Positions 10,874 through 43,682 of a stretch of DNA of 64,000 nucleotides are shown here, piece after piece; positions within the stretch are counted from its first letter, which is position 1; each line of letters starts with the position of its first letter. Origin of the DNA: Coxiellaceae bacterium (GTDB taxonomy: Bacteria; Pseudomonadota; Gammaproteobacteria; Coxiellales; Coxiellaceae); contig JAUXWQ010000028.1 in assembly GCA_030680235.1 (NCBI GenBank), positions 1 through 64,000 of the forward strand, in the 5' to 3' direction. A program made the position numbers and the translations under genes. A model generated the notes under the pieces. The model was not told the origin of the DNA, ran no database searches, and saw only the letters and a list, made by a program, of their open reading frames with translations.

Positions 10874-10879
10874 ACGCCC

Positions 10880-19117: not shown

Positions 19118-19123
19118 CAGCAC

Positions 19124-19153: not shown

Positions 19154-19169
19154 GCGCAGCTTATAAATT

Positions 19170-19253: not shown

Positions 19254-19326
19254 ACAATAAAAACGTCTTGGGTTATTAATCTCAAGCGCTTTTAAAAAAA
19301 TACTGTGCCTTTAAGATATTTCCTTC

Positions 19327-19574
19327 ATGTGCTTTTATTCTTTTAATAAAGAAGATAAAAAAGCCTCGAGCTATTATGTGCCACACAAAAATCCATTACC
19401 CCTAGAAAGATTAAAGTTAAAAAACATAATGCCTCATTACCATCGCCCACAATGCATCACGTTGATCCGCTGAGCAACTTTAGCGATTTATTTCATATCA
19501 GCAAACTGCGCAGAAAAAGTAAAGCATTGTCAACAGGTGATAAAACTATTGTCAGCCCACCCTTCACTCAGTAG
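19327..19574 (+). pseudogene. Possible frameshifted small ORF downstream of tRNA-Leu
   Basis: Two overlapping frames fill the 350-bp gap between tRNA-Leu and the deformylase gene. The first (19327-19473, 48 codons) contains PHKNPLPLERLKLKNIM; the second (19452-19574, 40 codons) contains DPLSNFSDLFHISKLRRKS. Joined by one frameshift they would give a protein of about 80 residues. Neither frame has a good ribosome binding site and I recognise no family, so this may be a decayed gene or chance. Confidence 0.25.
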
Positions 19575-19606
19575 AATTTCAAAAAATTACTGAAGAGAAG
19601 GTTCAC

Positions 19607-20164: not shown

Positions 20165-20176
20165 TAGTTTGATGTT

Positions 20177-20270
20177 TGATGCGAGCAGCATGAGCGTAGC
20201 GAGTGTTTTTGCAGGAAATCTTGATAACCATCAAACCCTGCAAAAACACTCGCACAGCGAGCGCTCGCAC
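20177..20270. repeat. Long palindromic intergenic repeat (copy 4)
   Basis: Left arm GATGCGAGCAGCATGAGCG onward to TTTTTGCAGG and right arm CCTGCAAAAACACTCGCA onward to GCGCTCGCA form a stem of about 30 bp with a few bulges. It lies between the convergent def and der genes. Confidence 0.8.
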
Positions 20271-20283
20271 CAAAAATCTCGAC

Positions 20284-21645
20284 TTACCGCGCATCCCTTT
20301 CTTCTGTCGAATTTTTAATCGGTGCATCGACAAATGGATTATTATCTCCTAAGAATTTCAAAATAAGCGGAATACCCACAAGCTTTAATTTATCGCGGAA
20401 GAAATGCACTAAATATTGCTTATAAGAGCCCGGTAATTTATCCACCTGCTTTCCATGAATTACAAATGATAAAGGCTTAGTAGAACCCACATGCGCATAA
20501 CGCAATTTTACACGACGCCCTTTTGCAAGCGGCGGCTGATGTGTTTCTGTTGCCGCCATCAAAATTTCTGTTAATTCATGTGTCGTAAATGCTTGTGATA
20601 ACGCCGCTTCCGTTTCATCAATCGCATCATACAATTGACCAACACCCGTGCCATGTTTTGCAGAGATAAAGTAACGCCGTGCAAATTTTGCAAAAGGTAA
20701 TTTGCGATCGATTTCATTTTTTAAATACGCACGATCGTCTTCACTCATACCATCCCATTTATTGAAGGCAAGCACCAATGCATTGCCCGTTTCAATAATT
20801 AATCCAAGCAATCGCATGTCTTGTTCAGTCAACCCATCGCGCGCATCCACCACCATCACAACCACATGGGCCTGACGCATTGCCTGCATCGCTTTAATCA
20901 CAGAAAATATTTCGACACCTTCTGTCATGTTTTTACGACGACGAACACCTGCTGTATCCACCAAGGTATAACTTTTACCATTGCGTTCATAAGGAATTTC
21001 GATCGAGTCTCGCGTTGTGCCCGGACGATCAAACACAATGACGCGCTCTTCACCAAAAATACGATTAATCAGTGTCGACTTACCTACATTTGGGCGACCC
21101 AACACTGCAATACGCGTTCGCTTACTGTCTTCTTTCTCAACCACTTCCTCAGGAAATGCCGACAAAATATCTGTCAACATTGAAACAACATGTCGACCAG
21201 TTGATGCTGAAATCGTAAATAATTCTTTAAAGCCGAGCGAATAAAATTCAGTGCCCGTCATTTCCAACACTTCGTGATCCGCTTTATTCGCAACCAACAC
21301 AATTCTTTTGTCTTTCACTTGGCGCAATTTTTTGGCAATCACATGGTCTGCATTCGCAACACCTGTTTTTGCATCGACAACAAATAAAATGACATCCGCT
21401 TCATTAATAGCTGCATCGACTTGTTGTTCAGTCATCGCACCCATTTCTGGATCATCTATTTCTGCAATACCACCGGTATCCACAACAATAAAAGCATGAT
21501 TTTCAAACTGCCCTTCGCCATATTGCCGATCGCGCGTAATACCTGCAACATCACCGACGATAGCGTCCCGCGTTCTCGTCAAACGATTAAATAAAGTAGA
21601 TTTGCCGACATTAGGACGGCCAACGATAGTAAGGACTGGTAACAT
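20284..21645 (-). CDS. der: Ribosome-associated GTPase Der (EngA)
   Basis: 453 residues with the tandem GTPase domains unique to Der: G1 motifs GRPNVGKST at residues 8-16 and again near 180, DTGG and DTAG G3 motifs, NKAD and NKWD G4 motifs, then a C-terminal KH-like domain (PPLAKGRRVKLRYAHVGSTKP). It acts in 50S subunit assembly. No clear ribosome binding site precedes the ATG. In many gammaproteobacteria bamB lies directly upstream of der; here that place holds a 205-bp non-coding gap. Confidence 0.97.
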   Translation of the reverse strand: MLPVLTIVGRPNVGKSTLFNRLTRTRDAIVGDVAGITRDRQYGEGQFENHAFIVVDTGGIAEIDDPEMGAMTEQQVDAAINEADVILFVVDAKTGVANADHVIAKKLRQVKDKRIVLVANKADHEVLEMTGTEFYSLGFKELFTISASTGRHVVSMLTDILSAFPEEVVEKEDSKRTRIAVLGRPNVGKSTLINRIFGEERVIVFDRPGTTRDSIEIPYERNGKSYTLVDTAGVRRRKNMTEGVEIFSVIKAMQAMRQAHVVVMVVDARDGLTEQDMRLLGLIIETGNALVLAFNKWDGMSEDDRAYLKNEIDRKLPFAKFARRYFISAKHGTGVGQLYDAIDETEAALSQAFTTHELTEILMAATETHQPPLAKGRRVKLRYAHVGSTKPLSFVIHGKQVDKLPGSYKQYLVHFFRDKLKLVGIPLILKFLGDNNPFVDAPIKNSTEERDAR

Positions 21646-21808
21646 AAGATTTTAACTACAAATGATGATAAAAACAGCTGGCAATATACGTTCAAACCCA
21701 CTTGAAATCAATGCGGGAATTAAAAATCAATAGGATAGGGGCTGTTTCGGTAACTTCTCAAAAAGCCAGGGGGAATTCCACTTTAGATTCGGAAAATTCG
21801 CTTGTTAC

Positions 21809-21836
21809 ACGCGCGGCTCGCACTCGCACGCGCGCC
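21809..21836. repeat. GC-rich hairpin between yfgM and der
   Basis: ACGCGCGG and its near complement CACGCGCGC flank a short loop in otherwise AT-rich DNA. This may be a worn copy of the palindrome family, or a pause/terminator between the two minus-strand genes. The rest of the 205-bp gap (21646-21850) shows nothing recognisable. Confidence 0.35.
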
Positions 21837-21850
21837 CAGGTTCTTACGGT

Positions 21851-22474
21851 TTAGTTCGCGCTCAGCTGCGCCAACACCGTTGCCGCAGGAGGGAAATCCG
21901 CCAATCCATTTTTTGCTTCTTGATAATATTTTTGTGCGGACTGCTGATTGCCTTCCTGCATTGCAATATCACCTTTCACCCAACTCACAAGCGGTGCAAA
22001 ACTTTTATCATCCATTTTTTTAATGACGGCTTCTGCCTCTTTGGGTTTCGACTGCGCTAATAACACACGAGCTGCATTAATACGCGCAATTTCTTTCAAA
22101 CGCGATACTGCGCCATGATCAATCACCCACTGCAATTCCGTTAATGCTTCCGGCAATTGTTTTTGATTGACTGCTTCTTTCGCAGCAAGCAATGCACCTA
22201 AACTCGCATAAGGCGTACCTGAAAAATGCTGCTTTAAAATAGCAACACCCCCCTGCAGAGTTTTAATTTGTTTGTCACTATTAGCTTGCAGTACTTGTTG
22301 ATAAACAACGGCTGCATTTTCAGCACGCTGCAATTGCAATTTTTGCCATTGACGCCATGAGAAACCAATTAATAAACCAATACCAACAGCCAGCAATAAC
22401 AGCTTGCCATGTTCGTTCCACCACTTACGAATCGATTCAATTTGTTCTTTTTCTGACACGTATCCATCTAACAT
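21851..22474 (-). CDS. yfgM: YfgM family protein (SecYEG ancillary subunit)
   Basis: 207 residues. A short cytosolic N-terminus (YVSEKEQIESIRKWWNEHG) is followed by one membrane segment (LLLLAVGIGLLIGFSW) and a periplasmic TPR-like helical domain. YfgM associates with SecYEG and PpiD and hands secreted proteins to periplasmic chaperones. AGGAG lies 7 nt before the ATG. It is 9 bp downstream of hisS, as in the gammaproteobacterial hisS-yfgM-bamB-der cluster. Confidence 0.9.
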   Translation of the reverse strand: MLDGYVSEKEQIESIRKWWNEHGKLLLLAVGIGLLIGFSWRQWQKLQLQRAENAAVVYQQVLQANSDKQIKTLQGGVAILKQHFSGTPYASLGALLAAKEAVNQKQLPEALTELQWVIDHGAVSRLKEIARINAARVLLAQSKPKEAEAVIKKMDDKSFAPLVSWVKGDIAMQEGNQQSAQKYYQEAKNGLADFPPAATVLAQLSAN

Positions 22475-29488: not shown

Positions 29489-30178
29489 CTAAAATAAGCT
29501 TTCTTTTTTGCTTTCAGCACACCCTTTTTTCTCTTTGCAAAAAACACCAATTAACACTGATAAAAAACCAAAAATTACCATAAGCGCACCAAGTACATCA
29601 CGCATTTTTTTTGCCAATAAAAGTTTTTGTGCTCCCAACAGGTAACGTCTTTTCCCTGCTTCTAATCTTAGCTCACCTGCTTTTAGTTTTTGATACCCTA
29701 TTTTAATCTGATCTTCACCCTTCGCTACTTTTTGCTCTCCTGCTGCCACTTCTTTTTCACCTGCTGCAACCCGTTCCTGCCCAGCAAGAATACTGCTCCT
29801 GCCTATAGCCACCTTATTTTGAACCCCATGAAAAATGTCTTGTATGATAGAAATGGGAATAAGAGAAGCGATCATTCCAAAAGGAAAGTTCTTCACTTTG
29901 TTATAGGTTTTTTCACCTTGAGCAAGCTCCTCCTTCCCAGCCGCTAAACGCTCTTTTCCCGCGACCAATTTTTCTTTACCAACAACCAATCGTTCCTTGC
30001 CACGCATAAGCTTTGCTTTACCCAAAGCAAGTGCTTTTTCACCAGCAATAATTTCCTGATAGCCTACACGCAATTGAATCTCACCAGCTTTAATTTGGCG
30101 ATTGAGAATCCAAACACAAAGCGCCATGACAACACACAGTACCGTTGTAAGTATGACGACAGACGATTTACGGAGCAT
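29489..30178 (-). CDS. Membrane protein with Gly-periodic heptad repeats
   Basis: 229 residues from the ATG at 30178 (AAGGTAAGGTA upstream). One membrane helix lies near the N-terminus (about 7-26) and another near the C-terminus (VLGALMVIFGFLSVLIGVF). Between them are two blocks of about eight and seven seven-residue units of the type G-K-E-(K/R)-L-x-A, separated by a hydrophobic segment (FPFGMIASLIPISIIQDIF). Gly recurs every seventh residue. The pattern predicts long helices or coiled coil outside the membrane. I do not recognise the family. The C-terminal tail is charged and Lys/Glu-rich. Confidence 0.75.
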   Translation of the reverse strand: MLRKSSVVILTTVLCVVMALCVWILNRQIKAGEIQLRVGYQEIIAGEKALALGKAKLMRGKERLVVGKEKLVAGKERLAAGKEELAQGEKTYNKVKNFPFGMIASLIPISIIQDIFHGVQNKVAIGRSSILAGQERVAAGEKEVAAGEQKVAKGEDQIKIGYQKLKAGELRLEAGKRRYLLGAQKLLLAKKMRDVLGALMVIFGFLSVLIGVFCKEKKGCAESKKESLF

Positions 30179-30633
30179 TACCTTACCTTCAATAACTAAA
30201 AGCTTGTTTAAAATCTCCCGATTCACTGAAAATAATGCTATTTGGCATAAAAAATTAACCATTTTCAGAGAAGGCAACAACAAGCATTCACCTTAAATTC
30301 TTAATTTTTTTCTACTCAAATCTCATCATTTTCGCTTGAGCGAGCCTGGAGATCTTAAACAGGCTCTAAAAGAACATGGACGTGAATTATCACAATTTGT
30401 AATAAAAAGTGCCAGGCCATTTCGCACAGCAAGACTGTCATTTTTTAAACAATCTAATAAAATCCACCTTGTTGAGAGCGCTAAGCTACTTCATCAACGA
30501 CTTATCCACAGGTTTCTTAACAGGCACTGTGGATGATGAGACCAAAAATGCAATTAAAACACAGCAACGCCAAAAATTGACGCAGAATCGAAGTTCCTTT
30601 ACCCTTTGCCCAACCAATTCAAGGAACGCAACC
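30179..30633. other. 455-bp intergenic region upstream of tex
   Basis: No supported gene. It holds a 7-bp perfect hairpin (GAGCCTG/CAGGCTC around 30340-30364), whose right side TAAACAGGCTCT is repeated in inverted orientation near 29312, and an inverted DnaA-box pair at 30502-30536. An open frame extends tex upstream to 30409, but its residues do not look like Tex and the start at 30634 has the ribosome binding site. Confidence 0.5.
30502..30536. promoter_or_regulatory. Inverted pair of DnaA-box-like sites
   Basis: TTATCCACAG (30502-30511) and CTGTGGATGA (30527-30536) face each other across 15 bp. The first matches the DnaA box exactly, the second at 8 of 9 positions. It may be a regulatory DnaA site or a hairpin in the tex leader. 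No other origin features are present. Confidence 0.3.
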
Positions 30634-32911: not shown

Positions 32912-32947
32912 ATAAATCCCCCGACGCTTTGCATCGGGAAGATTTAT
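32912..32947. terminator. Hairpin between convergent tex and cluster end
   Basis: ATAAATC (32912-32918) pairs with GATTTAT (32941-32947), and CCCGA (32920-32924) with TCGGG (32934-32938). There is no long T-run on either side. Its place at the ends of two convergent genes suggests a bidirectional terminator. Confidence 0.55.
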
Positions 32948-33435
32948 GCAATATATTTACATACTGAAACAGAAGCATATGTCGGCAACGCAATAGTAGC
33001 ATTGACACAAAGTGGTAAAATCGCCTGCTCAAAAACCACAATCAATCCATGATCACTCTTCGACAAACAAGCTGCTAAAATATGTTTTGCATTATCCAAT
33101 AAATTTTCTTTAGGTGACGAGATCGCAATCACCGATGATACTAAGTTAAATCTATTGATAACATACGGGACAATATGGGCATAATCGGGGTCATACTCAT
33201 AACTCTCATGGGCAATGACAATCACTTCTGATTTTAAAAACCACTCGGAAATAACGCTATTTTCAATAAGACATAATTCAAGCAACTCAGCAAAGGAAAA
33301 TCCCACTTTATCTGAGAAATGCAAAAAACCAGATTCTATACGCTGTAAATCAACACAATAATCAATAAAATCTTGCTTGGTTTTTCGAGAAGAAGAAGCT
33401 CTTGTTTTAAATAAAAAATGATCGACTAATATCAT
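32944..33435 (-). CDS. Half-length thiolase-fold-like protein, unknown function
   Basis: 163 residues, no signal peptide. By eye it aligns with the first 140 or so residues of the 249-residue protein at 40975-41724: similar openings, then SFAELLELCLIEN against SYEFLSGLLFDVV, and a strand of the type GLIVVFEQ against VLIVSIEM. That protein in turn resembles KAS III enzymes. If right, this is an isolated N-terminal half of a ketoacyl-synthase fold without catalytic Cys or His. It is the last gene of the cluster on the minus strand, separated from it by a 180-bp inverted-repeat element, and may be a decayed copy or a structural partner. Confidence 0.6.
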   Translation of the reverse strand: MILVDHFLFKTRASSSRKTKQDFIDYCVDLQRIESGFLHFSDKVGFSFAELLELCLIENSVISEWFLKSEVIVIAHESYEYDPDYAHIVPYVINRFNLVSSVIAISSPKENLLDNAKHILAACLSKSDHGLIVVFEQAILPLCVNATIALPTYASVSVCKYIA

Positions 33436-33458
33436 AAAAAAAACCGAATAGTTGCATA

Positions 33459-33638
33459 AACCTAGATCCGGCAGTTAAACCCTACTGTGAACGCTTAAAC
33501 GTCTGAATCTGTATTGAATTTTTAAAAAAATTTTTTCACCGCATGGGTGAATACTGTTTCAAAAATTTTTTCAAAAATCCAACGCATATTCATATGCCTA
33601 AGCTTTCTCGCTACGGATTTAACTGCCGAATCTAGGTT
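33459..33638. mobile_element. 180-bp MITE-like element with 21-bp terminal inverted repeats
   Basis: CCTAGATCCGGCAGTTAAA (33461-33479) and TTTAACTGCCGAATCTAGG (33618-33636) are complementary at 18 of 19 positions, with two more matching bases outside. The interior is AT-rich, without a transposase, and contains a smaller palindrome around CACCGCATGGGTG. The element abuts and overlaps the stop codon of the KAS III gene (33637-33639). It could be a non-autonomous transposon remnant or a very large terminator. Confidence 0.6.
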
Positions 33639-34554
33639 AAAATCTAAATACGGCTGCCGATAGTGTAAATCCGAGCCCACAACCAACCATGAGGTAATAG
33701 TCACCTGGTTTTAATAATCCTTCTAAAATAAGCGATTCTAAATTTATTAAATGATCTGAACAAAAACTATGTCCAAGCTCTGGAATATTTTTTAAATAAA
33801 TTTTTTCAATAGGAAAATGTAAGGCGCTTGAAATATTTCGCCAAGTTGAAAGATTTACATTGTGCGGCAAAATATAAGTGATTTCTGAAAGAGAAAGTTT
33901 TGCTTTTAAGAGCGCTTCTTTAACTACAGATACAGTGTTTTCTATATATATTAAATCAAATTTTTTTAATTCATCCATCGTTAAATAAATCCCTTTCTCA
34001 TAACCCCTTATGAATTTATTCACAACAGAAAGCAACTGATGGACGCCAGGTGAATTCAACCATATTGCTGCTGTTGAAACATCACTGACAATACTAGATT
34101 GTGGGACAACACGTAAAGCAGGTGTAAATGCAATTTCACCTGTTAATATTAATGCAGAGACACAATCAGAATATTTAAATAATTTTGAAAGTAGTTCCAA
34201 TGCTATAAAATAAGAAGCACATCGCGCATAAGAAATTTCAAAAAAATGACAGCGACTTAACCCAAACTTATCCTGCACTCTTTTTAAAAGTGAATCACCC
34301 TGTGGCAAAACCCAATCAGCCGTATGCAAATAGATTAAATAGTTAATCTGAGATACATCATACTGCAATTTTAATAAAGCATTTTCTATCAGCGAAAAAA
34401 CACCACCCTCATCATAAATAGCCACTTTCTTTAACCCATAAAAATGCTCAAAAACAGCAAGCATGTCTTTTGGAAGCCCTGTTTCATTCTGAAGTGAACG
34501 TATATCCTTTCTCTTATCTGGAATAAATGTTGAAAATAGGTTAAGAGAGAGCAT
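33637..34554 (-). CDS. KAS III-like ketoacyl synthase / acyltransferase, last of cluster
   Basis: 305 residues from the ATG at 34554, overlapping the previous gene by 14 nt; the longer frame to 34608 needs a TTG. The thiolase fold is recognisable: Cys112 in SYARCAS at the FabH nucleophile position, His231 in LPHNVN aligning with FabH PHQAN, and a C-terminal GDYYLMVGCGLGFTLSAAVFRF like the FabH end. The third FabH catalytic residue, Asn in HGNTS, aligns with His262 in LGHSFCSD, giving a Cys-His-His set as in FabB/FabF. It may condense or transfer acyl groups from the cluster's carrier protein. Confidence 0.82.
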   Translation of the reverse strand: MLSLNLFSTFIPDKRKDIRSLQNETGLPKDMLAVFEHFYGLKKVAIYDEGGVFSLIENALLKLQYDVSQINYLIYLHTADWVLPQGDSLLKRVQDKFGLSRCHFFEISYARCASYFIALELLSKLFKYSDCVSALILTGEIAFTPALRVVPQSSIVSDVSTAAIWLNSPGVHQLLSVVNKFIRGYEKGIYLTMDELKKFDLIYIENTVSVVKEALLKAKLSLSEITYILPHNVNLSTWRNISSALHFPIEKIYLKNIPELGHSFCSDHLINLESLILEGLLKPGDYYLMVGCGLGFTLSAAVFRF

Positions 34555-35434
34555 TATTTTTCTCACACAAATCAACCCACACACCCTCAAAAAAAGGGCT
34601 ATCCTCAAAAATTTTATCGGGTACTTTTAATAATGGGTTGGACTCATAAAAATGCCTTACCCTTGATAAATTATTTTCATCAATGGATAAAATTTTTGCG
34701 AGATCATCCATTAAAGAGATATGATTCTGCATTGGCTCTAACATTCCACCCCAGACATCCCACACCAATAATTCTTCCTTATTTAACAAAGCTAAATCTT
34801 GTATTAAACGATTGCGTACAACCGACAATCCACGACATTGTCTTGACCCAAAACGATTCGGATCTGCTGCTCCCTTACGACATAGCTGCCATGCCTTTGC
34901 TGCTGAAATAAACTTATTTTCTGGAATATCCGTTAAATCAAAATCAATTTTTAAGTGATAATGATCAATTTGTTCTTGAGAAGTACGGGTATCAACTAAG
35001 CGCCATCGCTTTAATGCACAATCATAATATTCAACAACCAGGCCATCTAAAAACAAACCTGGGATGAAATAAGTCACATATCCTGAACGAAGGCGCGCTG
35101 GAACAGAAAAAAATCGCAATATTGAACAAAGCAGTAGCGAACTATCACGACAAATACCCATTATTCTATGGTCTGGCGATCTTGGAATAATTAATGCATT
35201 GCTATTTTTAAATAAAATTTCTTTTAAAATATTATACAAATAACGATTATTTAATTCAGAATATCTTTCTTTTTTGACTGACGCACAAAATAAATCTAAA
35301 TCTGCGTAGTGCAAAAATAAATTTTGCATACAAGAACGAATAAAATTTATATCTTTTGGGAAATCCAAAAATAAATATTCAAATGATGCTGCATCTGAAT
35401 AGATGCTTTGATCGATATAATATCTCATGTACAA
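34541..35434 (-). CDS. Transglutaminase-fold protein, probable catalytic His lost
   Basis: 297 residues. The transglutaminase-like core has GICRDSSLLLCSILRFFSVPARLRSGY with Cys95, and WRLVDTR with Asp148. The His that normally precedes the VEYW-type strand aligns with Gly131 in LDGLVVEYYD. The C-terminal part with RNRLIQDLALLNKEELLVWDVWG matches a family of bacterial transglutaminase-like proteins. Such folds can form amides from acyl thioesters, as AdmF does in andrimid synthesis, but the missing His makes catalysis uncertain. It overlaps the adenylation gene by 10 nt and the KAS III gene by 14 nt. Confidence 0.78.
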   Translation of the reverse strand: MYMRYYIDQSIYSDAASFEYLFLDFPKDINFIRSCMQNLFLHYADLDLFCASVKKERYSELNNRYLYNILKEILFKNSNALIIPRSPDHRIMGICRDSSLLLCSILRFFSVPARLRSGYVTYFIPGLFLDGLVVEYYDCALKRWRLVDTRTSQEQIDHYHLKIDFDLTDIPENKFISAAKAWQLCRKGAADPNRFGSRQCRGLSVVRNRLIQDLALLNKEELLVWDVWGGMLEPMQNHISLMDDLAKILSIDENNLSRVRHFYESNPLLKVPDKIFEDSPFFEGVWVDLCEKNNALS

Positions 35435-36948
35435 TTCCTTCCCGTGGTTAATAATCTGTTATAATTAATTTTTCCATTCGTAAAACGCGGGAAAGCATCT
35501 ATTACGAAATGTTTTTCTGGAATTGCTGCCGGGATTAAATACGATCGAAGTTCTTTTTCGTAATCTTTCAATCTAAAATTTTCAAGTGAAAAAAGACATA
35601 AATAATCAATCAATTTTTCTGAATTACACTGTGGCACAACACAAATATCATCAAAACCCGTCACTAATTTCAATGTGTTTTCAACTTCCGATTTTTCAAT
35701 GCGATAACCCCTTATTTGCCACTGATCATCTCGTCTTTCTTTAAAAACAAAACCGTACTTTTTGTGAAAAAATGCGGTATCACCCGTAAAATATCGGTTT
35801 ATTTTTTTATCAGCAGATAATTGAAATTTTTCGTTTTTTTTCGAATCTGAAAATAAATATCCACTTGATACTTGCTCACCTGAAACAACCATTTCACTCT
35901 GGTTTGTTAATGCAATACCGACACCCGGAAAAGGATACCCAATAGGAACAGTGGTTAATCCAGAATAGTCATTTTTAGCATTATAACAATGGTATATGCA
36001 TGATACAGTCGCTTCGGTTGGCCCATAAAAATTAATTATGGTTGAATTTGGCGCTATTTTTTCCCATGATTTCGCATACGTGATAGGAAAAGGCTCCCCA
36101 CAAACAATTGTTTTCTTGAGCATTTTAAAATTTATTTTAAAATACCTGCTTAATTTTACAATTTGATCAATCATCGATGGAATAACAATAAGCTGCGTGA
36201 TGCCACTATTTCCAATAAAGTCTACAATACTCGAAAAAAAATTTGAATCATAGACATGCAAAGTAGCACCTACAGACCAACAAAACAGAATTTCATGTAT
36301 GGAAATATCAAAACCAATATCAGAAATTTGAGAAAAATGATCATTGGTATCACAGGGAAATAATATCCATACTGATGCTAAATAAGCATTGATATTTTTA
36401 TAGGATATAGGAACCCCTTTCGGACTTCCTGTTGAACCTGATGTGAACAACAAGTAAGCAATATCTTTTTCAGATGGAAACGTTATTTTTTTACTTGAAG
36501 TAGTGTCAAGCGCAATGTAACGCACCCTATTATTTTTTTTAAAAAATTTCAATAAGTTCTGATTCAAAACAAAAATTTTCTTTTTCGAAAAAGATGGGAT
36601 GAACGGCTTTATTTTTTCGTAATCTATATCGCCTATTAAAATAACCGCATTATCAATAGACTGTATAATTTTCTTATTACGATCCAAGCTCCCATTAATA
36701 TTGATTGGCGTATAAATCAGCTTTGATAAAAAACAGGCCAATATCAACTCATAAAAAAAATGGGTTTTTTCGGATAATAGGATGCAAGGAATATTTTTTT
36801 TAACATGCTTTTTCAAAAAAAAAGAAAGTGATTTTGCTGATGAAATAATATGATGATAACTATACTGATCCTCTCCAATCACCAAAGCAATTGAATCTGG
36901 ATTTCTTTTTTCAAAACCTAAAATTTCTTCTAAAAAATTAAATTCCAT
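35425..36948 (-). CDS. Stand-alone amino-acid adenylation enzyme
   Basis: 507 residues of the AMP-forming superfamily, NRPS A-domain type. The P-loop LLFTSGSTGSPKG is at about 166-178. The substrate segment GFDISIHEILF carries Asp214 at the position that binds the substrate amino group in NRPS A domains, so the substrate is probably an amino acid. INFYGPTEATVSC and a C-terminal catalytic Lys segment FTNGKINYNRLL are also present. It has no attached carrier domain, so it must load a separate protein, most simply the ACP at 41714. It sits 22 bp after the KAS III gene at 36971. Confidence 0.88.
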   Translation of the reverse strand: MEFNFLEEILGFEKRNPDSIALVIGEDQYSYHHIISSAKSLSFFLKKHVKKNIPCILLSEKTHFFYELILACFLSKLIYTPININGSLDRNKKIIQSIDNAVILIGDIDYEKIKPFIPSFSKKKIFVLNQNLLKFFKKNNRVRYIALDTTSSKKITFPSEKDIAYLLFTSGSTGSPKGVPISYKNINAYLASVWILFPCDTNDHFSQISDIGFDISIHEILFCWSVGATLHVYDSNFFSSIVDFIGNSGITQLIVIPSMIDQIVKLSRYFKINFKMLKKTIVCGEPFPITYAKSWEKIAPNSTIINFYGPTEATVSCIYHCYNAKNDYSGLTTVPIGYPFPGVGIALTNQSEMVVSGEQVSSGYLFSDSKKNEKFQLSADKKINRYFTGDTAFFHKKYGFVFKERRDDQWQIRGYRIEKSEVENTLKLVTGFDDICVVPQCNSEKLIDYLCLFSLENFRLKDYEKELRSYLIPAAIPEKHFVIDAFPRFTNGKINYNRLLTTGRNCT

Positions 36949-36970
36949 AAAGACTCATAATATAAAAAAA

Positions 36971-37900
36971 TTAATACTTCACTAACATAGCAGCAAAAGT
37001 TGAACCTAATCCAACGGTTACTAAAATAATATAGTCACCTGAAACTAATATACCTTCAGACTCAGCATCAAAAAAATTAATAAATGGATCAGCACCAAAA
37101 CAATGTGCTATTTTTGAGATATTATTGAGATAAAATCTATCGAGTGAAATCTGTAGTTTTTCAGCAACTTTCTTCCAAGAAAATACATTAACATTATGTG
37201 GAAATATTTTTTTTATTTGTGAAATAATCATGTTATTTTTATGCAGTAATTTCTGAATCGTATTCACAACATTATCTAAATAGCTGCTTTGAAATAATAA
37301 TTGCTCTTCATGATCCCCAAATATTCCCCTGGAAAAACTTCCTTGTTCGTTCAGGATAGTGTCTATTACAAAACGGTGAAGCACCGATTTCTTAAGCTGT
37401 ATCAATAGCGCTGAATCACTAAGCACCGTTGATCCTGGGATATATTGAAGAATATCTGTAAAAGCAAGATCAGAAACCAAAAGTAAAATAGTGTCTTCAT
37501 CAGATAAGTTTTCAAATAACTGACTTGATAACTTAAACAATTGAAATACAGACGCACACTTGTGTAGTGATACACCAAAAAACTGGGTTTTAACCAAACC
37601 ATGCTTTTTCAGTGAATTTTCAAAAATTTGAAACCCGCTTGGCGCTATGTCATCTGCTGTATGTGCATAAAAGCAATATTGAATCTTATTTTTATCAACT
37701 TTATTTTTTTTAAAGAATTGGCTTAATAAATTGATTAATTGCTTTTCATGTGTTAACAATAAATTCCTAATAACAAACTTTAGGCCAAAAATTTTTTCAA
37801 AAACATATCTCTCCGAAAGCGGTATTTCAGCTAATTTTTCCAATTCGGATAGCGGAACAGCATCGCCAGAAAGATCATAACTAATGTGTGCAATATTCAT
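36971..37900 (-). CDS. KAS III-like ketoacyl synthase / acyltransferase
   Basis: 309 residues, paralogous to the protein at 33637-34554. Cys115 lies in SLHKCASVFQ, His235 in FPHNVNVFSW, and His266 (IAHCFGAD) occupies the place of the FabH Asn. The N-terminal half shows YAHTADDIAPSG, matching YLHTADWVLPQG in the paralogue. The Cys-His-His set is intact, so it should be an active thiolase-fold enzyme. Its start overlaps the ligase stop by 4 nt. Two such enzymes in one operon may act in successive steps or as a pair. Confidence 0.83.
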   Translation of the reverse strand: MNIAHISYDLSGDAVPLSELEKLAEIPLSERYVFEKIFGLKFVIRNLLLTHEKQLINLLSQFFKKNKVDKNKIQYCFYAHTADDIAPSGFQIFENSLKKHGLVKTQFFGVSLHKCASVFQLFKLSSQLFENLSDEDTILLLVSDLAFTDILQYIPGSTVLSDSALLIQLKKSVLHRFVIDTILNEQGSFSRGIFGDHEEQLLFQSSYLDNVVNTIQKLLHKNNMIISQIKKIFPHNVNVFSWKKVAEKLQISLDRFYLNNISKIAHCFGADPFINFFDAESEGILVSGDYIILVTVGLGSTFAAMLVKY

Positions 37901-39381
37901 TCTGAACAGCCCTTAGCAATCAACTCCAAAGCTTTTCCATCCAGCTTTCCATTACTTAAGCAAGGGAATTGTCGTGTAATATACAACGCACTCGGTTTTT
38001 GTGCTGGTGGAAATAAAGATAATATTTCCAATCGAAAAAAATCATCATGGTTTTTTTCTATTTCAATACAGACAATTAATGCATCATCACTTAAAAATAA
38101 ATATGACCTATTTACAAAATCAATATCATTTATTTTTTTAATATATGTTTGACAACAAAGCTTCACACCTTTAAATTTAATAACACTATCTTTTCTACCT
38201 TTAAAATAAAAATAGCCATCTTCATCCATTATTGCTCTATCACCTGTCATAAGTGTTTTTTTATGTGATTCTGAAAATTTAATTTTTAAGTTTGTTTCTT
38301 CATTGTTTTTCCAGTACCCAATCATCACTGAAGGCCCAGATACTACTAAATTACCTTCATTATTTTTTGTAAGCTTATTGCCTTCATCATCCTCAATCCA
38401 CATTTCTAAATTTGGCATTGGAATACCAATAGAATCCATTTTTTCAGCCAGCATACTTGGCGGGACATAACTGCATCGCTTGCATTCTGTTAAACCATAC
38501 ATTGAAAATAGCTGAGCTTTTGGAAACAAGTGTTTTATTTTTTCAATATGTGCGCTTGTTAAATTCTCACCTGTATTAGTAATCATTCTTACCGAATGAT
38601 AATCTTTTTTATTATGCTTACTAAAAACATGCAAAAGCTGCACAAGATAAGGGATGCAAGGAATCACCGTCACTTTTTTATGAATTATTTTATGTGAAAT
38701 TTTATTAATAAATAACGAATTTTCTTCTAAAATTAGTGTTGCACCAAAGGAAAGCGGCAAAAATAATTGATAGAGGCCATAATCAAAATGCAAGGGTAAA
38801 ACAGAAAGTATAATATCTGAACCATTAATTCCTAGATAAGTACGAATTGCATATAGCGCAGAAAGTACATTTCGATGAGATAGCATAACGCCTTTTGGAA
38901 GTCCCGTGCTTCCTGAAGTATGCATAATCATCACCAAATCTTGTTCTGTACTCTTGAAAATCATTTCAAAAGAATTTTTACCAATTAAAATATCATCTAG
39001 ACAAATAATATTTTTTTTGTGAAAAATATCCTTTTTAAGAGGATCATTTTTTTTTACAATAGCTATTTTTGGTTGCAATGACTGAATCAATTTTTCAAGT
39101 ATTTCTATGGGCAAGTTTTCATCCAATACACAAGGAACAGCATCACAAAAAATTGCGGAGAAAAAAGAAACCACAGTTAAATAACTGTTACCAGATTGGA
39201 TTAAAACGCGATCACCTCTACTTAAGTAACACTCAACTAAATATGCGGAAAATTTTAGCACCTCGTTAAAAAATGCTTCATAAGTAATATTTACATTATC
39301 TATAATTAAAGCTATTTTTTTAGGGTGTAATTTTGCAGTATTAATCAACTCATGCTGCAAAAGAAATGGATAGTTTTCCAT
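37897..39381 (-). CDS. AMP-forming acyl/aminoacyl ligase, exosortase-A-cluster type
   Basis: 494 residues. The P-loop MIMHTSGSTGLPKGVMLSHRN is near 152-170, with PLHFDYGLYQL, SMYGLTECKRCSYVPP and a C-terminal FPCLSNGKLDGKAL with the catalytic Lys. The GLTECKR(C/V)SYVPP region is characteristic, to my memory, of the ligases found in exosortase-A-associated clusters (TIGR03098) and of related prolyl-AMP ligases. It would load an acid on the ACP of this cluster. AGAGG lies before the ATG, supporting this start even though it overlaps the dehydrogenase gene by 32 nt. Confidence 0.87.
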   Translation of the reverse strand: MENYPFLLQHELINTAKLHPKKIALIIDNVNITYEAFFNEVLKFSAYLVECYLSRGDRVLIQSGNSYLTVVSFFSAIFCDAVPCVLDENLPIEILEKLIQSLQPKIAIVKKNDPLKKDIFHKKNIICLDDILIGKNSFEMIFKSTEQDLVMIMHTSGSTGLPKGVMLSHRNVLSALYAIRTYLGINGSDIILSVLPLHFDYGLYQLFLPLSFGATLILEENSLFINKISHKIIHKKVTVIPCIPYLVQLLHVFSKHNKKDYHSVRMITNTGENLTSAHIEKIKHLFPKAQLFSMYGLTECKRCSYVPPSMLAEKMDSIGIPMPNLEMWIEDDEGNKLTKNNEGNLVVSGPSVMIGYWKNNEETNLKIKFSESHKKTLMTGDRAIMDEDGYFYFKGRKDSVIKFKGVKLCCQTYIKKINDIDFVNRSYLFLSDDALIVCIEIEKNHDDFFRLEILSLFPPAQKPSALYITRQFPCLSNGKLDGKALELIAKGCSE

Positions 39382-40483
39382 TCATCACCTCTTTTAATCT
39401 TTTTTTTAGGTGGATTTTTTGAATCATTGTAGTACCTTCCATAAACTCCCAACAAAATACATCACGATATGCTTTGACAATCCAAGGATTTTCAATCAAT
39501 TGATTAATGTCACAAAGATCATAGCAAGCTGAAATGACGGTTTCAGCTGTACGCGTCGCCATTACTTTAGAGGCCGACACGTGATAAAAATCCAAAGGTG
39601 ATTTATCAACAGAGTCTGCCGCAAAATGCAAATAACGCCGAGCTGCCGTTAATTGATGGTGCAACTCATCAAAAAAAGAGCCTCTTGAAAAAAAATCGCT
39701 TTTTCTTAACTGCAACACCAAGTCGTATACCGCTTGTGCCTGACCAATTGCAAGTGCGCCAACACCTGTTCTCAGCTGATTAAAAACTTTCAAAATACTA
39801 AGCAATCCATTTTGACAAACTGATTTATGACCCCCTAAAATCAACGACTCCGGAACTTCTAAATTTGAAAACCTCATATAAGAAATTTGAGCACCTTTCA
39901 AACTTGCCATTGGCAACACCTGTTTTTCAATGCACTGACTTTTAAGAAGCGCTGGTTTCAGCCAAATTGCACGAATACCAACAGGTCCATCATTGATACG
40001 CGCCAAAACAATTCCTGTTTCAGCGACCGCACCATTTCCAAAAAAACACTTCTCACCTGTTAAAAAATAGGATTTATCTTTTTTTATCAATTGTGTATCT
40101 ATATTGTTTGCATCAGACCCTTTTTTAGGCTCAGTCAATCCAAAAAATGTTCTCATTTTTTTTGATTGAATCTCTGAATAAAATTCATCAATCTGATTTT
40201 GACTTCCTAGTTCTCGTAGCATTAAACCGGATAATGAAGGACCTGGCGATGCCAGCAAAACACCTAGATCACCATATGAAAATGCTTCTAAATAACAGGT
40301 TCTTTCAAGCGCTGTACTGTTTTTATCAGAAACAAGGAAATCAATAGCAGGCAAATTAAAATAATTTTTTATTTTTGAAGGATCTTGATCAATAATAAGG
40401 GCTATTTCACGAAAATTACGCGCATAAGCATATAATTTCTCACCATAGCGATCTACAGGAGCTAAATAACTGCTTTTTTTCAT
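39350..40483 (-). CDS. Acyl-CoA / acyl-ACP dehydrogenase
   Basis: 377 residues with the acyl-CoA dehydrogenase layout: FFGLTEPKKGSDANN (FAD/substrate loop), GEKCFFGNGAVAE, and a C-terminal FMEGTTMIQKIHL with Glu349 at the catalytic-base position used by medium-chain enzymes. In carrier-protein pathways such enzymes oxidise a tethered acyl group, for example prolyl-PCP to pyrrolyl-PCP. It starts on a TAATG overlap with the preceding helical protein, and TTGGAG provides the ribosome binding site. It is quite diverged from the catabolic enzyme at 9713. Confidence 0.88.
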   Translation of the reverse strand: MKKSSYLAPVDRYGEKLYAYARNFREIALIIDQDPSKIKNYFNLPAIDFLVSDKNSTALERTCYLEAFSYGDLGVLLASPGPSLSGLMLRELGSQNQIDEFYSEIQSKKMRTFFGLTEPKKGSDANNIDTQLIKKDKSYFLTGEKCFFGNGAVAETGIVLARINDGPVGIRAIWLKPALLKSQCIEKQVLPMASLKGAQISYMRFSNLEVPESLILGGHKSVCQNGLLSILKVFNQLRTGVGALAIGQAQAVYDLVLQLRKSDFFSRGSFFDELHHQLTAARRYLHFAADSVDKSPLDFYHVSASKVMATRTAETVISACYDLCDINQLIENPWIVKAYRDVFCWEFMEGTTMIQKIHLKKRLKEVMNGKLSISFAA

Positions 40484-40971
40484 TACAACTCCAAATATTT
40501 TATAAGAAATTTAAGGCTTGTCATTAACTCTATTGCATTATTTTTTAAAATAGCCCTTGCACCACCTAACTGCCCCAGTTGCTTCAAAATGAAAACACAT
40601 TGCTCCATCACCTGTATTTTATTTTCATAAAATATGATCTTATCGAGCATTAAAATAATCTCTAAAAAAATATCTTCAATTACTGCTAATTCTGCTATTG
40701 CAAAACCATTATATTTCCTAGAAGACAAATGTTCATAGGTGTAAAATAATATTGTTAAAATGGCATCCACAAGAACGGGAATAAATTTACTTAAAAAAAG
40801 CGTTCTTTTTTCTCTTAGAAAAGAAAATCTCACAGCCTCTTTAAAAAAAATAGGGTCATCAAAACACTCCATATTTCCAGAGTATGAAAAATTCTTTAGT
40901 GCCAACTTCAAAAGATCACTTAATAGAATTGGCTTATAGTGAGCCGAGTCGAATTTTATTGTTATATCCAC
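40483..40971 (-). CDS. Helical protein resembling an acyl-CoA-dehydrogenase C-terminal half
   Basis: 162 residues, all-helical, no signal peptide. By eye its last 110 residues line up with the C-terminal helical bundle of the adjacent dehydrogenase, including FILKQLGQLGGARAILKNN near the position where family members have Q-x-x-GG. It lacks the N-terminal FAD and substrate loops. It could pair with the full-length enzyme as a non-catalytic subunit. The gap to the upstream gene is 3 bp and the downstream start overlaps its stop. Confidence 0.6.
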   Translation of the reverse strand: MDITIKFDSAHYKPILLSDLLKLALKNFSYSGNMECFDDPIFFKEAVRFSFLREKRTLFLSKFIPVLVDAILTILFYTYEHLSSRKYNGFAIAELAVIEDIFLEIILMLDKIIFYENKIQVMEQCVFILKQLGQLGGARAILKNNAIELMTSLKFLIKYLEL

Positions 40972-40974
40972 TTT

Positions 40975-41724
40975 CTACCCTTTCCTTAAAAGGACAACAG
41001 CATATCTTTGCAATGACATTTCTTGATCAACAATTAAAAGATATTTTCTATCCTTATTTTTTTCATCAATGACAGAAAGTGCTTTATATAAAAAAGCAGA
41101 GTCAAAGCAAAACCCAAAATTCTTATGACTAACAATAAAGACATCTTCCAGCGAAATTTCAAAATTTTTCAACATTAGATTTACAAAATTTTTTAGGCTA
41201 TTTTTATTTTTCGTGTAAAAAAAATTACAGTAATCTATATAAAAATTTTTACTAGAAGTTCTATTTTTTCTTATTTCTAAAAACCCAATATAAGGAAAGT
41301 TTTTAAAAATTGAATCCATTTCAATAGAGACAATAAGCACATTTTTATTTAATGATTTCGCTAGACTAATCGCCTGATAAACACAAAGCGAACCACAATC
41401 CCTAATATCTAGCAAATTACTTTTTAAACAGTACTTATTTTTTAGATACAATTCTTGTGAAACATGCCCCCCATCCCAGTTATAACCATGCCTTGGAAAT
41501 AAAACCCAGGCAATATCAGACAGAAAATTTTTATTTTTTACAACATCAAAAAGCAATCCCGATAAAAACTCATAAGAATAAATTTTTTTCTTATTATTCA
41601 CTGAAAAATCAATATGGTATCTAAGATGCAAATCTTTATAATACTGAACTCTTCCGACATCCATATTAATAAACCCATCATCCACATTTTCTAAGTCATT
41701 AAAATAAAAACTTTCAATGTACAT
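40975..41724 (-). CDS. Short thiolase-fold protein without catalytic cysteine
   Basis: 249 residues. Segments align by eye with the two KAS III proteins of the cluster: LLDIRDCGSLCVYQAISLAKS with their active-site region, ISLEDVFIVSHKN with their LPHNVN region, and a final YLLIVDQEMSLQRYAVVLLR strand pair. The column of the catalytic Cys holds Ser112, with Cys110 and Cys114 nearby; one His (SHKN) remains; and the third catalytic residue region is deleted. It may be an inactive partner like the chain-length factor of type II PKS. It overlaps the ACP gene by 11 nt. Confidence 0.65.
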   Translation of the reverse strand: MYIESFYFNDLENVDDGFINMDVGRVQYYKDLHLRYHIDFSVNNKKKIYSYEFLSGLLFDVVKNKNFLSDIAWVLFPRHGYNWDGGHVSQELYLKNKYCLKSNLLDIRDCGSLCVYQAISLAKSLNKNVLIVSIEMDSIFKNFPYIGFLEIRKNRTSSKNFYIDYCNFFYTKNKNSLKNFVNLMLKNFEISLEDVFIVSHKNFGFCFDSAFLYKALSVIDEKNKDRKYLLIVDQEMSLQRYAVVLLRKG

Positions 41725-41983
41725 ACTCAGCCTTTGAAAGCATTTGTAAATTCACATAATTCACCACAGATGAAACCGTTTCTAAATCACTCATCTGCAA
41801 TGTTTCAGGGTCAACCAAAAAACCCGGGATATTTTCTTCTAGTTTCATTAAAAACATCAATGAACTCATTGAATCCAATTGAAGATCATTGCGCAAACGA
41901 TGATGCATCAAAATTTTTGAAGTGTCCAAAAAATTTAATGACGCTGCTAATGCATTTTTTACTGATATTTCTGTATCTAACAT
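41714..41983 (-). CDS. Acyl carrier protein
   Basis: 89 residues with the carrier-protein signature LQLDSMSSLMFLMKLEE; Ser38 in DSM is the phosphopantetheine attachment site. It lies between the PLP decarboxylase (12 bp upstream) and the short thiolase-fold protein (overlap 11 nt). As the only carrier protein in the cluster, it is the natural anchor for the amino acid or acyl group handled by the two ligases, the decarboxylase, the dehydrogenase and the KAS-type enzymes. Confidence 0.9.
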   Translation of the reverse strand: MLDTEISVKNALAASLNFLDTSKILMHHRLRNDLQLDSMSSLMFLMKLEENIPGFLVDPETLQMSDLETVSSVVNYVNLQMLSKAEYVH

Positions 41984-41995
41984 ATTAATTTCCTT

Positions 41996-43255
41996 TTAAT
42001 GTAGTTGTGTTGCCAATAAATCTGATAACTCTTCTTTACGTCTAATAAGCTTTAATACCGAATCATCCAACATGACCTCAGCTGGGCTACCATGACTTAA
42101 AAATCTTCCAGGGGATGCGGTTAAACCATACGCACCTGTTTTTTCAAGAATAATCAAATCATCTAAAAACACCGGTGGTAAAATAACATTTCTTAACAAA
42201 ATATCACCCGGCGTACAAAGCGGGCCCGAAATTTGGAATTCATCTAGCATTTCTTTATGAGCTCTTTTTTTTAAAGAAATATGTCGCATAGGGAAATTTC
42301 GATGGACAAAGGATCCAACACCGGTTGCAGCCAAGTGGCAATGCATTCCGCCATCCAAAATAACATAATTTTTTTCATGGCTTTTTTTAATAGATTGAAC
42401 AGAGGAAATAAAATACCCAGACTCTGAAACCAAATAACGACCTAACTCCATAATAAATCGCATTTTTGGATTTTCTTTTTTATACTCAGCAATCAATGCA
42501 TTAATTTCTTTTATGAGTGATTTTATTGGAAGTGTATTTTCACCTTCAAAATAGGGAATACCAAATCCACCGCCAAAATCAATCACGCTAAAATTTATTT
42601 TAGACAAATAGGACAATTCTTTTGAACTTTCAAAAATATTTTTGATGTTTTTAACAATTGAATAAAAATGTAAAACGCGACTTGCATTATAAATTTGTAT
42701 GCCATCAACACAGACAAAACTACACGCCGCTATCCTATCTATATTCTTTAAAAAATTTGAAAAATCTATTCCAAACTGTGTTGCAACACCACTCATTTTA
42801 ATAGGTGCACCAGGAACAATAAAATCTGGATTGATTCGAATCAATATCTTTACAATTTTATTTTTACTTTCTGCAATATAATTAATAGCCTCTATTTCTT
42901 CTATTGATTCACAAATAACATAGCGAATGTCTTCTTCAATTGCCAACACCAATTCATTTTTTTTCTTTCCCGGCCCTACAAAAATAATGTTTTTTGGCAA
43001 GAATCCTGCAGCAATTGCCATTAACAACTCATTTGCACAAGAAACCTCACAGCAAGCACCATAGCTTTGAAACTGCTTACAAATTTCAATAGAAGGATTA
43101 GCTTTCATTGAATAAAAAATATCACATTCTTTTGAGAGTAGTTCTCTTAATTCAGAATATTTATTTTGAATGCATGCTAAATCATAAAGATATACTGGTG
43201 TTCCGAAACGTTTCGCCACTTCTAATAAAATATCATTTGATACTACATCACTCAT
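41996..43255 (-). CDS. Type III PLP-dependent decarboxylase (LysA/BtrK-like)
   Basis: 419 residues, alanine-racemase-fold decarboxylase. The PLP Lys51 is in FYSMKANPS, the phosphate-binding glycines in VIDFGGGFGIPYF, and the active-site Cys region GPLCTPGD. The stretch TGAYGLTASPGRFLSH resembles the decarboxylases of exosortase-A clusters (TIGR03099) and BtrK, which decarboxylates glutamate while it is bound to a carrier protein. The next gene is an ACP, so a carrier-bound amino acid substrate is likely. AAAGAG precedes the ATG. A role as the lysine-pathway LysA is less likely given this context. Confidence 0.87.
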   Translation of the reverse strand: MSDVVSNDILLEVAKRFGTPVYLYDLACIQNKYSELRELLSKECDIFYSMKANPSIEICKQFQSYGACCEVSCANELLMAIAAGFLPKNIIFVGPGKKKNELVLAIEEDIRYVICESIEEIEAINYIAESKNKIVKILIRINPDFIVPGAPIKMSGVATQFGIDFSNFLKNIDRIAACSFVCVDGIQIYNASRVLHFYSIVKNIKNIFESSKELSYLSKINFSVIDFGGGFGIPYFEGENTLPIKSLIKEINALIAEYKKENPKMRFIMELGRYLVSESGYFISSVQSIKKSHEKNYVILDGGMHCHLAATGVGSFVHRNFPMRHISLKKRAHKEMLDEFQISGPLCTPGDILLRNVILPPVFLDDLIILEKTGAYGLTASPGRFLSHGSPAEVMLDDSVLKLIRRKEELSDLLATQLH

Positions 43256-43265
43256 AACATACTCT

Positions 43266-43682
43266 TTAAATGTGTGTAATTGTTCCGTTAACTACTTTTC
43301 CATTTATTTTTGACGACTGGTCAATCTCGACAGACCCTGGTTTTGAGCCTTCAAAAATAACATCATGATCAACCACAGAGCTTTGTTTCAACGTTATTTT
43401 TTCATGCGAGCCATTATCTTCAGAGATGATCTTATTGAACTCAGTTTTTGCAGCGTTAATAGGGCCGCTTATGTCAGCAATACCTGTAATAACAGATTGC
43501 GATACATTCAAAGGACCACGAACAACAATGTCATTAATACTGACCTGCTGACAAAATGTTGGACCATCGTAAGTGTGCGTACCAGGCTCATAAAAACCAA
43601 TCACAGCACAGAGATCTTCTGCTTGCGCAATATTGCCTGCAAGAATACCAAGCAATACAATATTTAAAATAGTTTTTTTCAT
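43266..43682 (-). CDS. Secreted polymer-forming (bactofilin-like) protein
   Basis: 138 residues with a signal peptide cleaved near AQA (residue 21). The mature part shows short beta-rich repeats (VVRGPLNVSQSVITGIADISGPINAAKTEF; SSVVDHDVIFEGSKPGSVEIDQSSKINGKVVNG) that suggest a right-handed beta-solenoid, as in bactofilin-like proteins. Two Cys (24, 43) could form a disulfide. It is 10 bp upstream of the decarboxylase and may be the first gene of the cluster transcript. Its ribosome binding site lies in a perfect 10-bp hairpin. Confidence 0.7.
   Translation of the reverse strand: MKKTILNIVLLGILAGNIAQAEDLCAVIGFYEPGTHTYDGPTFCQQVSINDIVVRGPLNVSQSVITGIADISGPINAAKTEFNKIISEDNGSHEKITLKQSSVVDHDVIFEGSKPGSVEIDQSSKINGKVVNGTITHI

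What the first reader, a model, noticed from the sequence alone, without database searches (positions are those of the whole stretch)
32944..43682. Undescribed carrier-protein-based biosynthetic operon
Ten to twelve tightly overlapping minus-strand genes encode an ACP, a BtrK-like PLP decarboxylase, two AMP-forming ligases, an acyl-CoA dehydrogenase, two KAS III-type enzymes with a complete active site, two degenerate thiolase-fold proteins, a half-dehydrogenase-like protein and a transglutaminase-fold protein. There is no modular NRPS or PKS. The set suggests an amino acid is adenylated, loaded on the ACP, decarboxylated and/or oxidised there, and condensed or transferred. I know no characterised pathway with this exact combination; the product is unknown.
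Basis: partly seen in the sequence, partly recalled or inferred. Interest (0 to 1): 0.9.

Follow-up and report, generated by a model that had tools for sequence, protein, structure and literature searches.

The report
NRPS-free dehydro-beta-alanine peptide operon
A compact bacterial operon, kept in several relatives of Coxiella, looks built to turn aspartate into beta-alanine-type building blocks on one small carrier protein and join them into an exported small molecule without the usual giant enzymes, a logic first worked out in 2025 for a Burkholderia antifungal.

Summary
Window 32944-43682 (minus strand) carries a tight operon of 11 biosynthetic genes plus one secreted protein. It is not pseudogenic: the same order recurs at mostly 40-55% protein identity in three congeners and, less complete, in another genus, with catalytic residues kept. 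Two corrections. First, the carrier-loading enzyme is most likely the second ligase (37897-39381), not the A domain at 35425-36948: it is VinN-like and keeps VinN's D230, K330, R331 and shortened loop, so it should activate the side-chain carboxylate of aspartate (or glutamate), leaving the alpha-carboxylate for the BtrK-type decarboxylase. Second, the transglutaminase-fold protein has lost its catalytic His. Best explanation: a condensation-domain-free, ACP-based beta-alanine/dehydro-beta-alanine assembly line working like the afc (AFC-BC11, 2025) pathway and the front end of bolagladin biosynthesis, with KAS III-like proteins (Cys-His-His) making the acyl/amide transfers. So a characterised pathway with this logic exists, but this gene set is a new variant (amino-acid-type A enzyme with transglutaminase fold, paired KAS and ACAD subunits, no fatty acyl-AMP ligase). 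KAS relatives occur at 285 places in genomes of several phyla. The product is unknown.

The parts
43266..43682 (-). gene m: small secreted protein of unknown family, conserved at the head of the operon in 4 relatives
   Evidence: 40-47% identity in L023, L024, L025, L027; signal-peptide-like N-terminus by reading; no Pfam match
41996..43255 (-). gene l: BtrK-type PLP decarboxylase acting on ACP-bound amino acid (AfcP/BolN/VinO role)
   Evidence: best PDB match BtrK 295 bits versus 157 for the best DAP decarboxylase; tree groups it with decarboxylases of KAS clusters, apart from exosortase-type ones
41714..41983 (-). gene k: stand-alone acyl/peptidyl carrier protein, Ser in LDSMS
   Evidence: NCBIfam ACP matches; 62-71% identical in congeners and G014
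40975..41724 (-). gene j: degenerate KAS III-fold partner, catalytic Cys not conserved
   Evidence: profile comparison with KAS family; alignment A3
40483..40971 (-). gene i: ACAD half-protein, probable partner of gene h
   Evidence: AlphaFold model pLDDT 78.7; top 50 Foldseek hits all ACADs, best E 0.08; homologues next to the ACAD in Vibrio, Photorhabdus, Paenibacillus
39350..40483 (-). gene h: acyl-CoA dehydrogenase-type enzyme with catalytic Glu (MEGT), predicted beta-alanyl-thioester desaturase (BolQ/AfcE role)
   Evidence: Pfam; PDB alignment to CarC; alignment A5
37897..39381 (-). gene g (A2): VinN-like ligase, predicted to load Asp (or Glu) via the side-chain carboxylate on the ACP
   Evidence: best PDB match VinN 3WVN, 2.8e-59; D230, K330, R331 kept, F231 to Tyr, S299 to Thr, short loop
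36971..37900 (-). gene f: KAS III-like acyltransferase, Cys-His-His
   Evidence: Pfam ACP_syn_III_C; triad
35425..36948 (-). gene e (A1): alpha-amino-acid-type adenylation enzyme without its own carrier domain
   Evidence: TIGR01733/DltA matches; LgrA A domain best PDB; lacks K330/R331
34541..35434 (-). gene d: transglutaminase-fold protein, Cys kept, catalytic His replaced by Gly
   Evidence: fused to A1 in one ORF in G003
33637..34554 (-). gene c: KAS III-like acyltransferase, Cys-His-His; start ATG 34554 judged from relatives (the listed frame opens at TTG 34608)
   Evidence: Pfam; alignments
33459..33638 (.). MITE-like palindromic element between genes c and a (not part of the pathway)
   Evidence: 24-nt terminal inverted repeats; second full-length copy and partial copies elsewhere in the genome
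32944..33435 (-). gene a: truncated second degenerate KAS-fold partner (homologue of j)
   Evidence: hhalign 99% to j; longer in G001 and G003

Best explanation
A condensation-domain-free, single-carrier-protein assembly line for a small exported amide built on beta-alanine or dehydro-beta-alanine, working like the afc (AFC-BC11) system. Proposed steps: (1) VinN-like ligase g adenylates the side-chain carboxylate of L-Asp (less likely L-Glu) and loads ACP k, possibly iteratively as AfcQ does; (2) BtrK-like decarboxylase l removes the free alpha-carboxylate, giving beta-alanyl-ACP; (3) a KAS III pair (f with j, or c with a) N-acylates the amine from a fatty acyl or other thioester; (4) the ACAD h with partner i desaturates the beta-alanyl thioester to the enamide; (5) A-enzyme e activates a second amino acid, and the other KAS pair with the transglutaminase-fold protein d couples and releases the product; (6) RND, MATE or MFS pumps found beside relatives export it. 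Shown by sequence or structure: enzyme families, active-site residues, VinN pocket, conserved gene set. Inferred: order of steps, Asp as substrate, KAS pairing, roles of e and d, export, product.
For: Gene g: best PDB match VinN, with D230/K330/R331 and the shortened loop conserved in all six Legionellales copies, Photorhabdus and Vibrio, absent from A1; role of these residues from PMC11253843. Gene l is closest to BtrK by nearly twofold bits, and BtrK, VinO and AfcP act on ACP-bound substrates. ACAD keeps its Glu; the bolQ deletion shows this enzyme type makes dehydro-beta-alanine. AfcL (KAS III-like) was shown to carry and transfer the beta-alanyl chain. No C domain in the operon, and none detected in four other genomes that carry it (G001, G003, G005, G014). 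Conserved order and residues in relatives. Pumps inside or next to relatives' clusters.
Against: No substrate or product evidence. No fatty acyl-AMP ligase, citrate synthase or methyltransferase as in afc. KAS triad is C-H-H, not C-H-D as in AfcL. F231 and S299 of VinN are Tyr and Thr here, so Glu (as for BtrK) is possible. The own genome has NRPS genes on other contigs, so hand-over to an NRPS in this strain is not excluded. G014 has the transglutaminase-fold gene and one KAS but no A1, second KAS or gene a beside the operon. Gene a is truncated. I could not obtain afc or bol sequences for direct comparison.
Confidence: 0.62

Rival explanations
1. GABA version: g loads L-Glu through the gamma-carboxylate, l makes GABA-ACP as in butirosin, the ACAD gives a 4-aminocrotonyl thioester, and the KAS III proteins transfer it.
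For: Decarboxylase closest to BtrK, a glutamyl-ACP decarboxylase; F231Y and S299T differ from VinN; Firmicute relatives have a preATP-grasp ligase, the fold class of BtrJ (own knowledge).
Against: VinN pocket (D230, K330, R331, short loop) is the Asp-type pocket; the ACAD plus KAS III context matches the Asp/dehydro-beta-alanine pathways bol and afc.
Confidence: 0.2
2. The KAS III proteins do true carbon-carbon condensation with malonyl-ACP, giving an amino-ketide (for example a pyrroline alkaloid).
For: The Cys-His-His set is that of decarboxylating KAS I/II (own knowledge) and is kept in 120 of 126 family members including references.
Against: KAS III homologues in the two characterised relatives are assigned acyl or amide transfer; no ketoreductase, dehydratase or malonyl loading gene in the operon.
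Confidence: 0.15
3. Starter-unit supplier: the operon makes an N-acyl-beta-aminoacyl thioester that is handed to an NRPS encoded elsewhere, as in bolagladin.
For: The window genome has large NRPS genes on contigs C9 and C10; bolagladin works this way.
Against: No C domain found in G001, G003 (100% complete), G005 and G014 (100% complete), which all carry the operon.
Confidence: 0.08
4. Decaying remnant of a pathway with no current function.
For: Gene a truncated, MITE between c and a; congener G004 has lost everything but the ACP.
Against: Eleven other frames open and syntenic in several species, catalytic residues kept.
Confidence: 0.06

Closest known systems
afc cluster / AFC-BC11 (Burkholderia cepacia complex; PMC12186527)
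   Same: VinN-type A enzyme, single ACP, PLP decarboxylase, ACAD, KAS III-like transferases, no condensation domain
   Different: afc has FAAL AfcA, citrate synthase, methyltransferase, desaturases and C-H-D KAS; the window has an amino-acid-type A1, a transglutaminase-fold protein, C-H-H KAS with degenerate partners and an ACAD half-protein
Bolagladin cluster front end (BolO/BolC/BolN/BolM/BolP/BolQ; PMC7756342)
   Same: VinN-like ligase, ACP, BtrK-like decarboxylase, two KAS III homologues, ACAD giving dehydro-beta-alanine
   Different: bol feeds a tetramodular NRPS; BolM/BolP have Ser/Thr in place of the KAS Cys; no NRPS here
Vicenistatin VinN/VinL/VinO/VinM (PMC11284099)
   Same: side-chain loading on a stand-alone ACP, decarboxylation there, second stand-alone A enzyme
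   Different: delivers a PKS starter; no ACAD or KAS III described in that cassette
Butirosin BtrI/BtrK (PMC7857480; PDB 2J66, 7RU7)
   Same: closest solved relative of the decarboxylase; ACP-bound substrate
   Different: BtrJ-type ligase absent here; no ACAD or KAS III in that route (own knowledge)
Photorhabdus/Xenorhabdus/Vibrio ruber clusters (L077, L104, L094; uncharacterised as far as found)
   Same: carry homologues of k, j, i, h, g, c, e, d, l
   Different: contain MATE and RND pumps and an alpha/beta hydrolase; their transglutaminase-fold protein keeps His; decarboxylase groups with the exosortase type

Membership tests
afc-type condensation-free beta-alanine assembly | VinN-type ligase loading Asp through the side chain (R331 equivalent) | tested here: met
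   D230, K330, R331 and short loop; the substrate itself was not tested
afc-type condensation-free beta-alanine assembly | single stand-alone carrier protein with Ser | tested here: met
   and sequence LDSMS
afc-type condensation-free beta-alanine assembly | BtrK/VinO-type PLP decarboxylase | tested here: met
afc-type condensation-free beta-alanine assembly | no condensation domains in the system | tested here: met
   operon frames; PF00668 absent from four carrier genomes; present elsewhere in the window genome
afc-type condensation-free beta-alanine assembly | fatty acyl-AMP ligase (AfcA) for N-capping | tested here: not met
   only two ligases: VinN-like g and amino-acid-type e with the A-domain Asp
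afc-type condensation-free beta-alanine assembly | KAS III-like transferase with Cys-His-Asp | tested here: not met
   KAS III fold and Cys present, but the triad is Cys-His-His
afc-type condensation-free beta-alanine assembly | iterative loading of Asp and beta-alanyl chain transfer by KAS III-like enzyme | not testable with these tools
   needs purified enzymes
bolagladin pathway | dehydro-beta-alanine unit handed to an NRPS in the cluster | tested here: not met
   no NRPS in or beside the operon
bolagladin/AFC dehydro-beta-alanine chemistry | ACAD-type desaturase with catalytic Glu | tested here: met
   activity not testable with these tools
butirosin side-chain pathway | ATP-grasp ligase BtrJ loading Glu | tested here: not met
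   no ATP-grasp gene in the operon; preATP-grasp only in Firmicute and actinomycete relatives
canonical FabH (KAS III) | Cys-His-Asn triad | tested here: not met
   Asn replaced by His
transglutaminase-like cysteine enzymes | Cys-His-Asp triad | tested here: not met
   Cys kept; His position is Gly in window and most relatives, His kept in Rhizobium, Vibrio, Photorhabdus copies

The most novel reading that the evidence does not exclude
The operon represents a widespread, so far unrecognised class of condensation-domain-free peptide assembly lines in which pairs of an active Cys-His-His KAS III and an inactive KAS partner form the amide bonds, a split ACAD makes the enamide, and an A-enzyme/transglutaminase-fold unit adds and releases a second amino acid; its product in Coxiella relatives would be a new chemotype.
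Probability: 0.4. Interest if true: 0.75.

Novelty: new variant of a known kind. Interest (0 to 1): 0.6.

Why it matters
The afc pathway was reported in 2025 as an unusual way to make peptides without condensation domains. This operon, and its relatives in Bacillota, Actinomycetota, Pseudomonadota and Bdellovibrionota, suggest the same logic is widespread and comes in a streamlined form of about 11 genes, small enough to move whole into E. coli. It supplies candidates for roles left open in afc: an enzyme to activate the C-terminal amino acid and one to release the product. It also puts a small-molecule pathway in relatives of the intracellular pathogen Coxiella.

Tried and rejected
Loading by A1 (35425-36948): rejected as the main loader because it lacks VinN's K330/R331 and has an ordinary amino-acid A-domain pocket. 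Exosortase-type system: decarboxylase and ligase resemble those, but the tree and motif separate them. Pyrrole pathway of PigA/RedW type: ACAD only weakly similar and the PLP decarboxylase does not fit. Direct profile match of the half-dehydrogenase to the ACAD failed; fold search used instead. The transglutaminase structure prediction was poor (pLDDT 60) and its fold search meaningless. A Burkholderia cenocepacia region (NZ_CP091013) looked at as a possible afc or bol copy is a different, related cluster. Relation of gene m to DUF2807 proteins beside the Vibrio and Rahnella clusters was only eyed, not shown. Paper searches for an already described identical cluster found none beyond bol and afc.
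Full report
WHAT IS THERE. The window is G000:C14 of a 2.03-Mb genome. Between 43682 and 32944 on the minus strand lie, in transcription order: m (138 aa, secreted-like), l (PLP decarboxylase), k (ACP), j (249 aa), i (162 aa), h (ACAD), g (ligase A2), f (KAS III), e (ligase A1), d (transglutaminase fold), c (KAS III) and a (163 aa). From l to c the genes overlap or are separated by at most 22 bp. Between c and a lies a 180-bp palindromic element with 24-nt terminal repeats, of which one further full-length and several partial copies exist elsewhere in the genome. G+C is 0.32 against 0.41 for the rest of the window, and a lower operon G+C is seen in all five relatives examined.

CONSERVATION. 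The same operon in the same order is present in three congeners, G005 (L023), G003 (L024) and G001 (L025), and in other genera as G014 (L027, without A1, second KAS and a) and G009 (L026, reordered, with RND pump genes inside). That the host is a Coxiellaceae member is therefore an inference. In G001 the operon lies between the amidase gene amiB and an aminotransferase/uvrB pair. In operon-less G004, rated 100% complete, exactly that interval holds an intact orphan ACP 52% identical to k, and in G006 it holds unrelated genes. The simplest reading is an old operon at a fixed locus, lost in some species, with an ACP left behind in one. In G003 A1 and the transglutaminase-fold protein are one 798-aa ORF, which ties their functions together.

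THE ENZYMES. Decarboxylase l: best solved relative is BtrK (295 bits; next 157) (profile search). A tree places it with decarboxylases of the other KAS III clusters (support 0.95), away from the exosortase-type ones. BtrK acts on glutamyl-ACP (PMC7857480); such enzymes need a free alpha-carboxylate, so the amino acid must be loaded by its side chain. Ligase g: best solved relative is VinN (3WVN, 2.8e-59; identity of the entry from PMC11253843). In VinN, D230 holds the amino group and the short loop with K330/R331 makes room for the substrate, R331 being proposed to bind the alpha-carboxylate. Using VinN numbering, g and its five Legionellales homologues, plus the Photorhabdus and Vibrio ones, keep D230, K330, R331 and the shortened loop; F231 is Tyr and S299 Thr. 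A1 keeps only D230 and is an ordinary amino-acid A domain. By motif alignment its ten-residue code reads roughly D-I-H-M-I-C-F-V-S-K (inference), and it varies between species, so no substrate is predicted. ACAD h keeps the catalytic Glu (MEGT). Protein i gives a helical model (pLDDT 78.7) whose top 50 Foldseek hits are all ACADs, although no hit passes E 0.001. KAS III proteins c and f have Cys, His and, in place of the FabH Asn, a second His; 120 of 126 family sequences, references included, share Cys-His-His. Proteins j and a are homologous to each other and j resembles KAS III without its Cys. Two active KAS and two degenerate ones suggest heterodimers (inference). Protein d belongs to a stand-alone family annotated as transglutaminase in rhizobia and vibrios, but in the Legionellales operon copies the catalytic His is replaced (Gly in most) while Cys is kept; Photorhabdus, Vibrio and Robbsia cluster copies retain His.

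THE WIDER FAMILY. One scan of 84,980 species genomes with the c/f alignment gave 285 places encoding relatives; the best 79 loci were read. Photorhabdus, Xenorhabdus and Vibrio ruber clusters have nearly the same gene set plus MATE and RND pumps and an alpha/beta hydrolase. Bacillota and actinomycete clusters share c, l, k, j and h but use a preATP-grasp ligase, with an agmatinase-like protein and MATE pump in Paenibacillus and Bacillus. Plasmid clusters of Rahnella, Agrobacterium vitis VAR03-1 and Tritonibacter add P450s and further ligases. In a class-wide sample of 369 genomes only the window's own genome had strong hits, so the distribution is patchy.

MECHANISM AND PRECEDENT. Two characterised pathways carry the same module. 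Bolagladin: BolO (VinN-like), BolC (ACP), BolN (BtrK-like), BolM/BolP (KAS III) and BolQ (ACAD; deletion gives beta-alanine instead of dehydro-beta-alanine), feeding an NRPS (PMC7756342). AFC-BC11: VinN-type AfcQ loads Asp on the sole carrier AfcK and iterates, AfcP decarboxylates to beta-alanine, FAAL AfcA caps, KAS III-like AfcL takes over the chain and passes it to lysyl-CoA, BolQ-like AfcE is expected to desaturate, and no C domains are used (PMC12186527). The window operon matches this logic at loading, decarboxylation, desaturation and KAS III transfer. It differs in having no FAAL, citrate synthase or methyltransferase, and in having an amino-acid A enzyme linked to a transglutaminase-fold protein, KAS and ACAD partner subunits, and the C-H-H triad. 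In afc the activation of lysine and the final release are unassigned; A1 and d are candidates for such roles here (inference). NRPS condensation domains are absent from four other genomes with the operon, two of them rated 100% complete, so the operon should work without them; the window genome itself has NRPS genes on other contigs.

LIMITS. Asp rather than Glu, the acyl donor, the amino acid used by A1, the order of steps and the product are not shown. Sequences of afc and bol could not be fetched, so the comparison with them rests on published family assignments. The transglutaminase model was too poor to use.

VERDICT. Observation confirmed; interpretation partly supported. It is a new variant of a recently described kind, not a categorically new system.

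Noticed in passing
window 33459-33638: 180-bp MITE-like palindromic element with 24-nt terminal inverted repeats; another full-length copy at G000:C41:71754-71934 (83%) and several partial copies on other contigs.
   Followed up: partly
L169:9452-9727 (G004:C16): Intact orphan ACP, 52% identical to the operon ACP, left alone at the locus where congener G001 has the whole operon.
   Followed up: yes
G000:C9 about 3663-16877 and C10 about 12825-22199: Large NRPS genes (open frames of at least 3135 aa) in the window's own genome, absent from most congeners searched.
   Followed up: no
L040, L048 (Paenibacillus, Bacillus): Related clusters with a preATP-grasp ligase, agmatinase-like protein, an unknown 336-339 aa protein and a MATE pump; product not known to me.
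   Followed up: partly
L170:3725-7530 (Sinorhizobium meliloti pSymB): asnB + ACP + VinN-like ligase trio with the same TECKR motif; similar ligases on many Sinorhizobium and Ensifer replicons.
   Followed up: no
window 29489-30283: 264-aa protein with many repeats of the type AxGxxxLxxGKxxLxxG between membrane-like ends.
   Followed up: no
L121 (Agrobacterium vitis VAR03-1) and L122 (Rahnella aceris): Related KAS III/ACP/decarboxylase clusters on plasmids of plant-associated bacteria; Rahnella aquatilis HX2, a crown-gall biocontrol strain, carries one too.
   Followed up: partly
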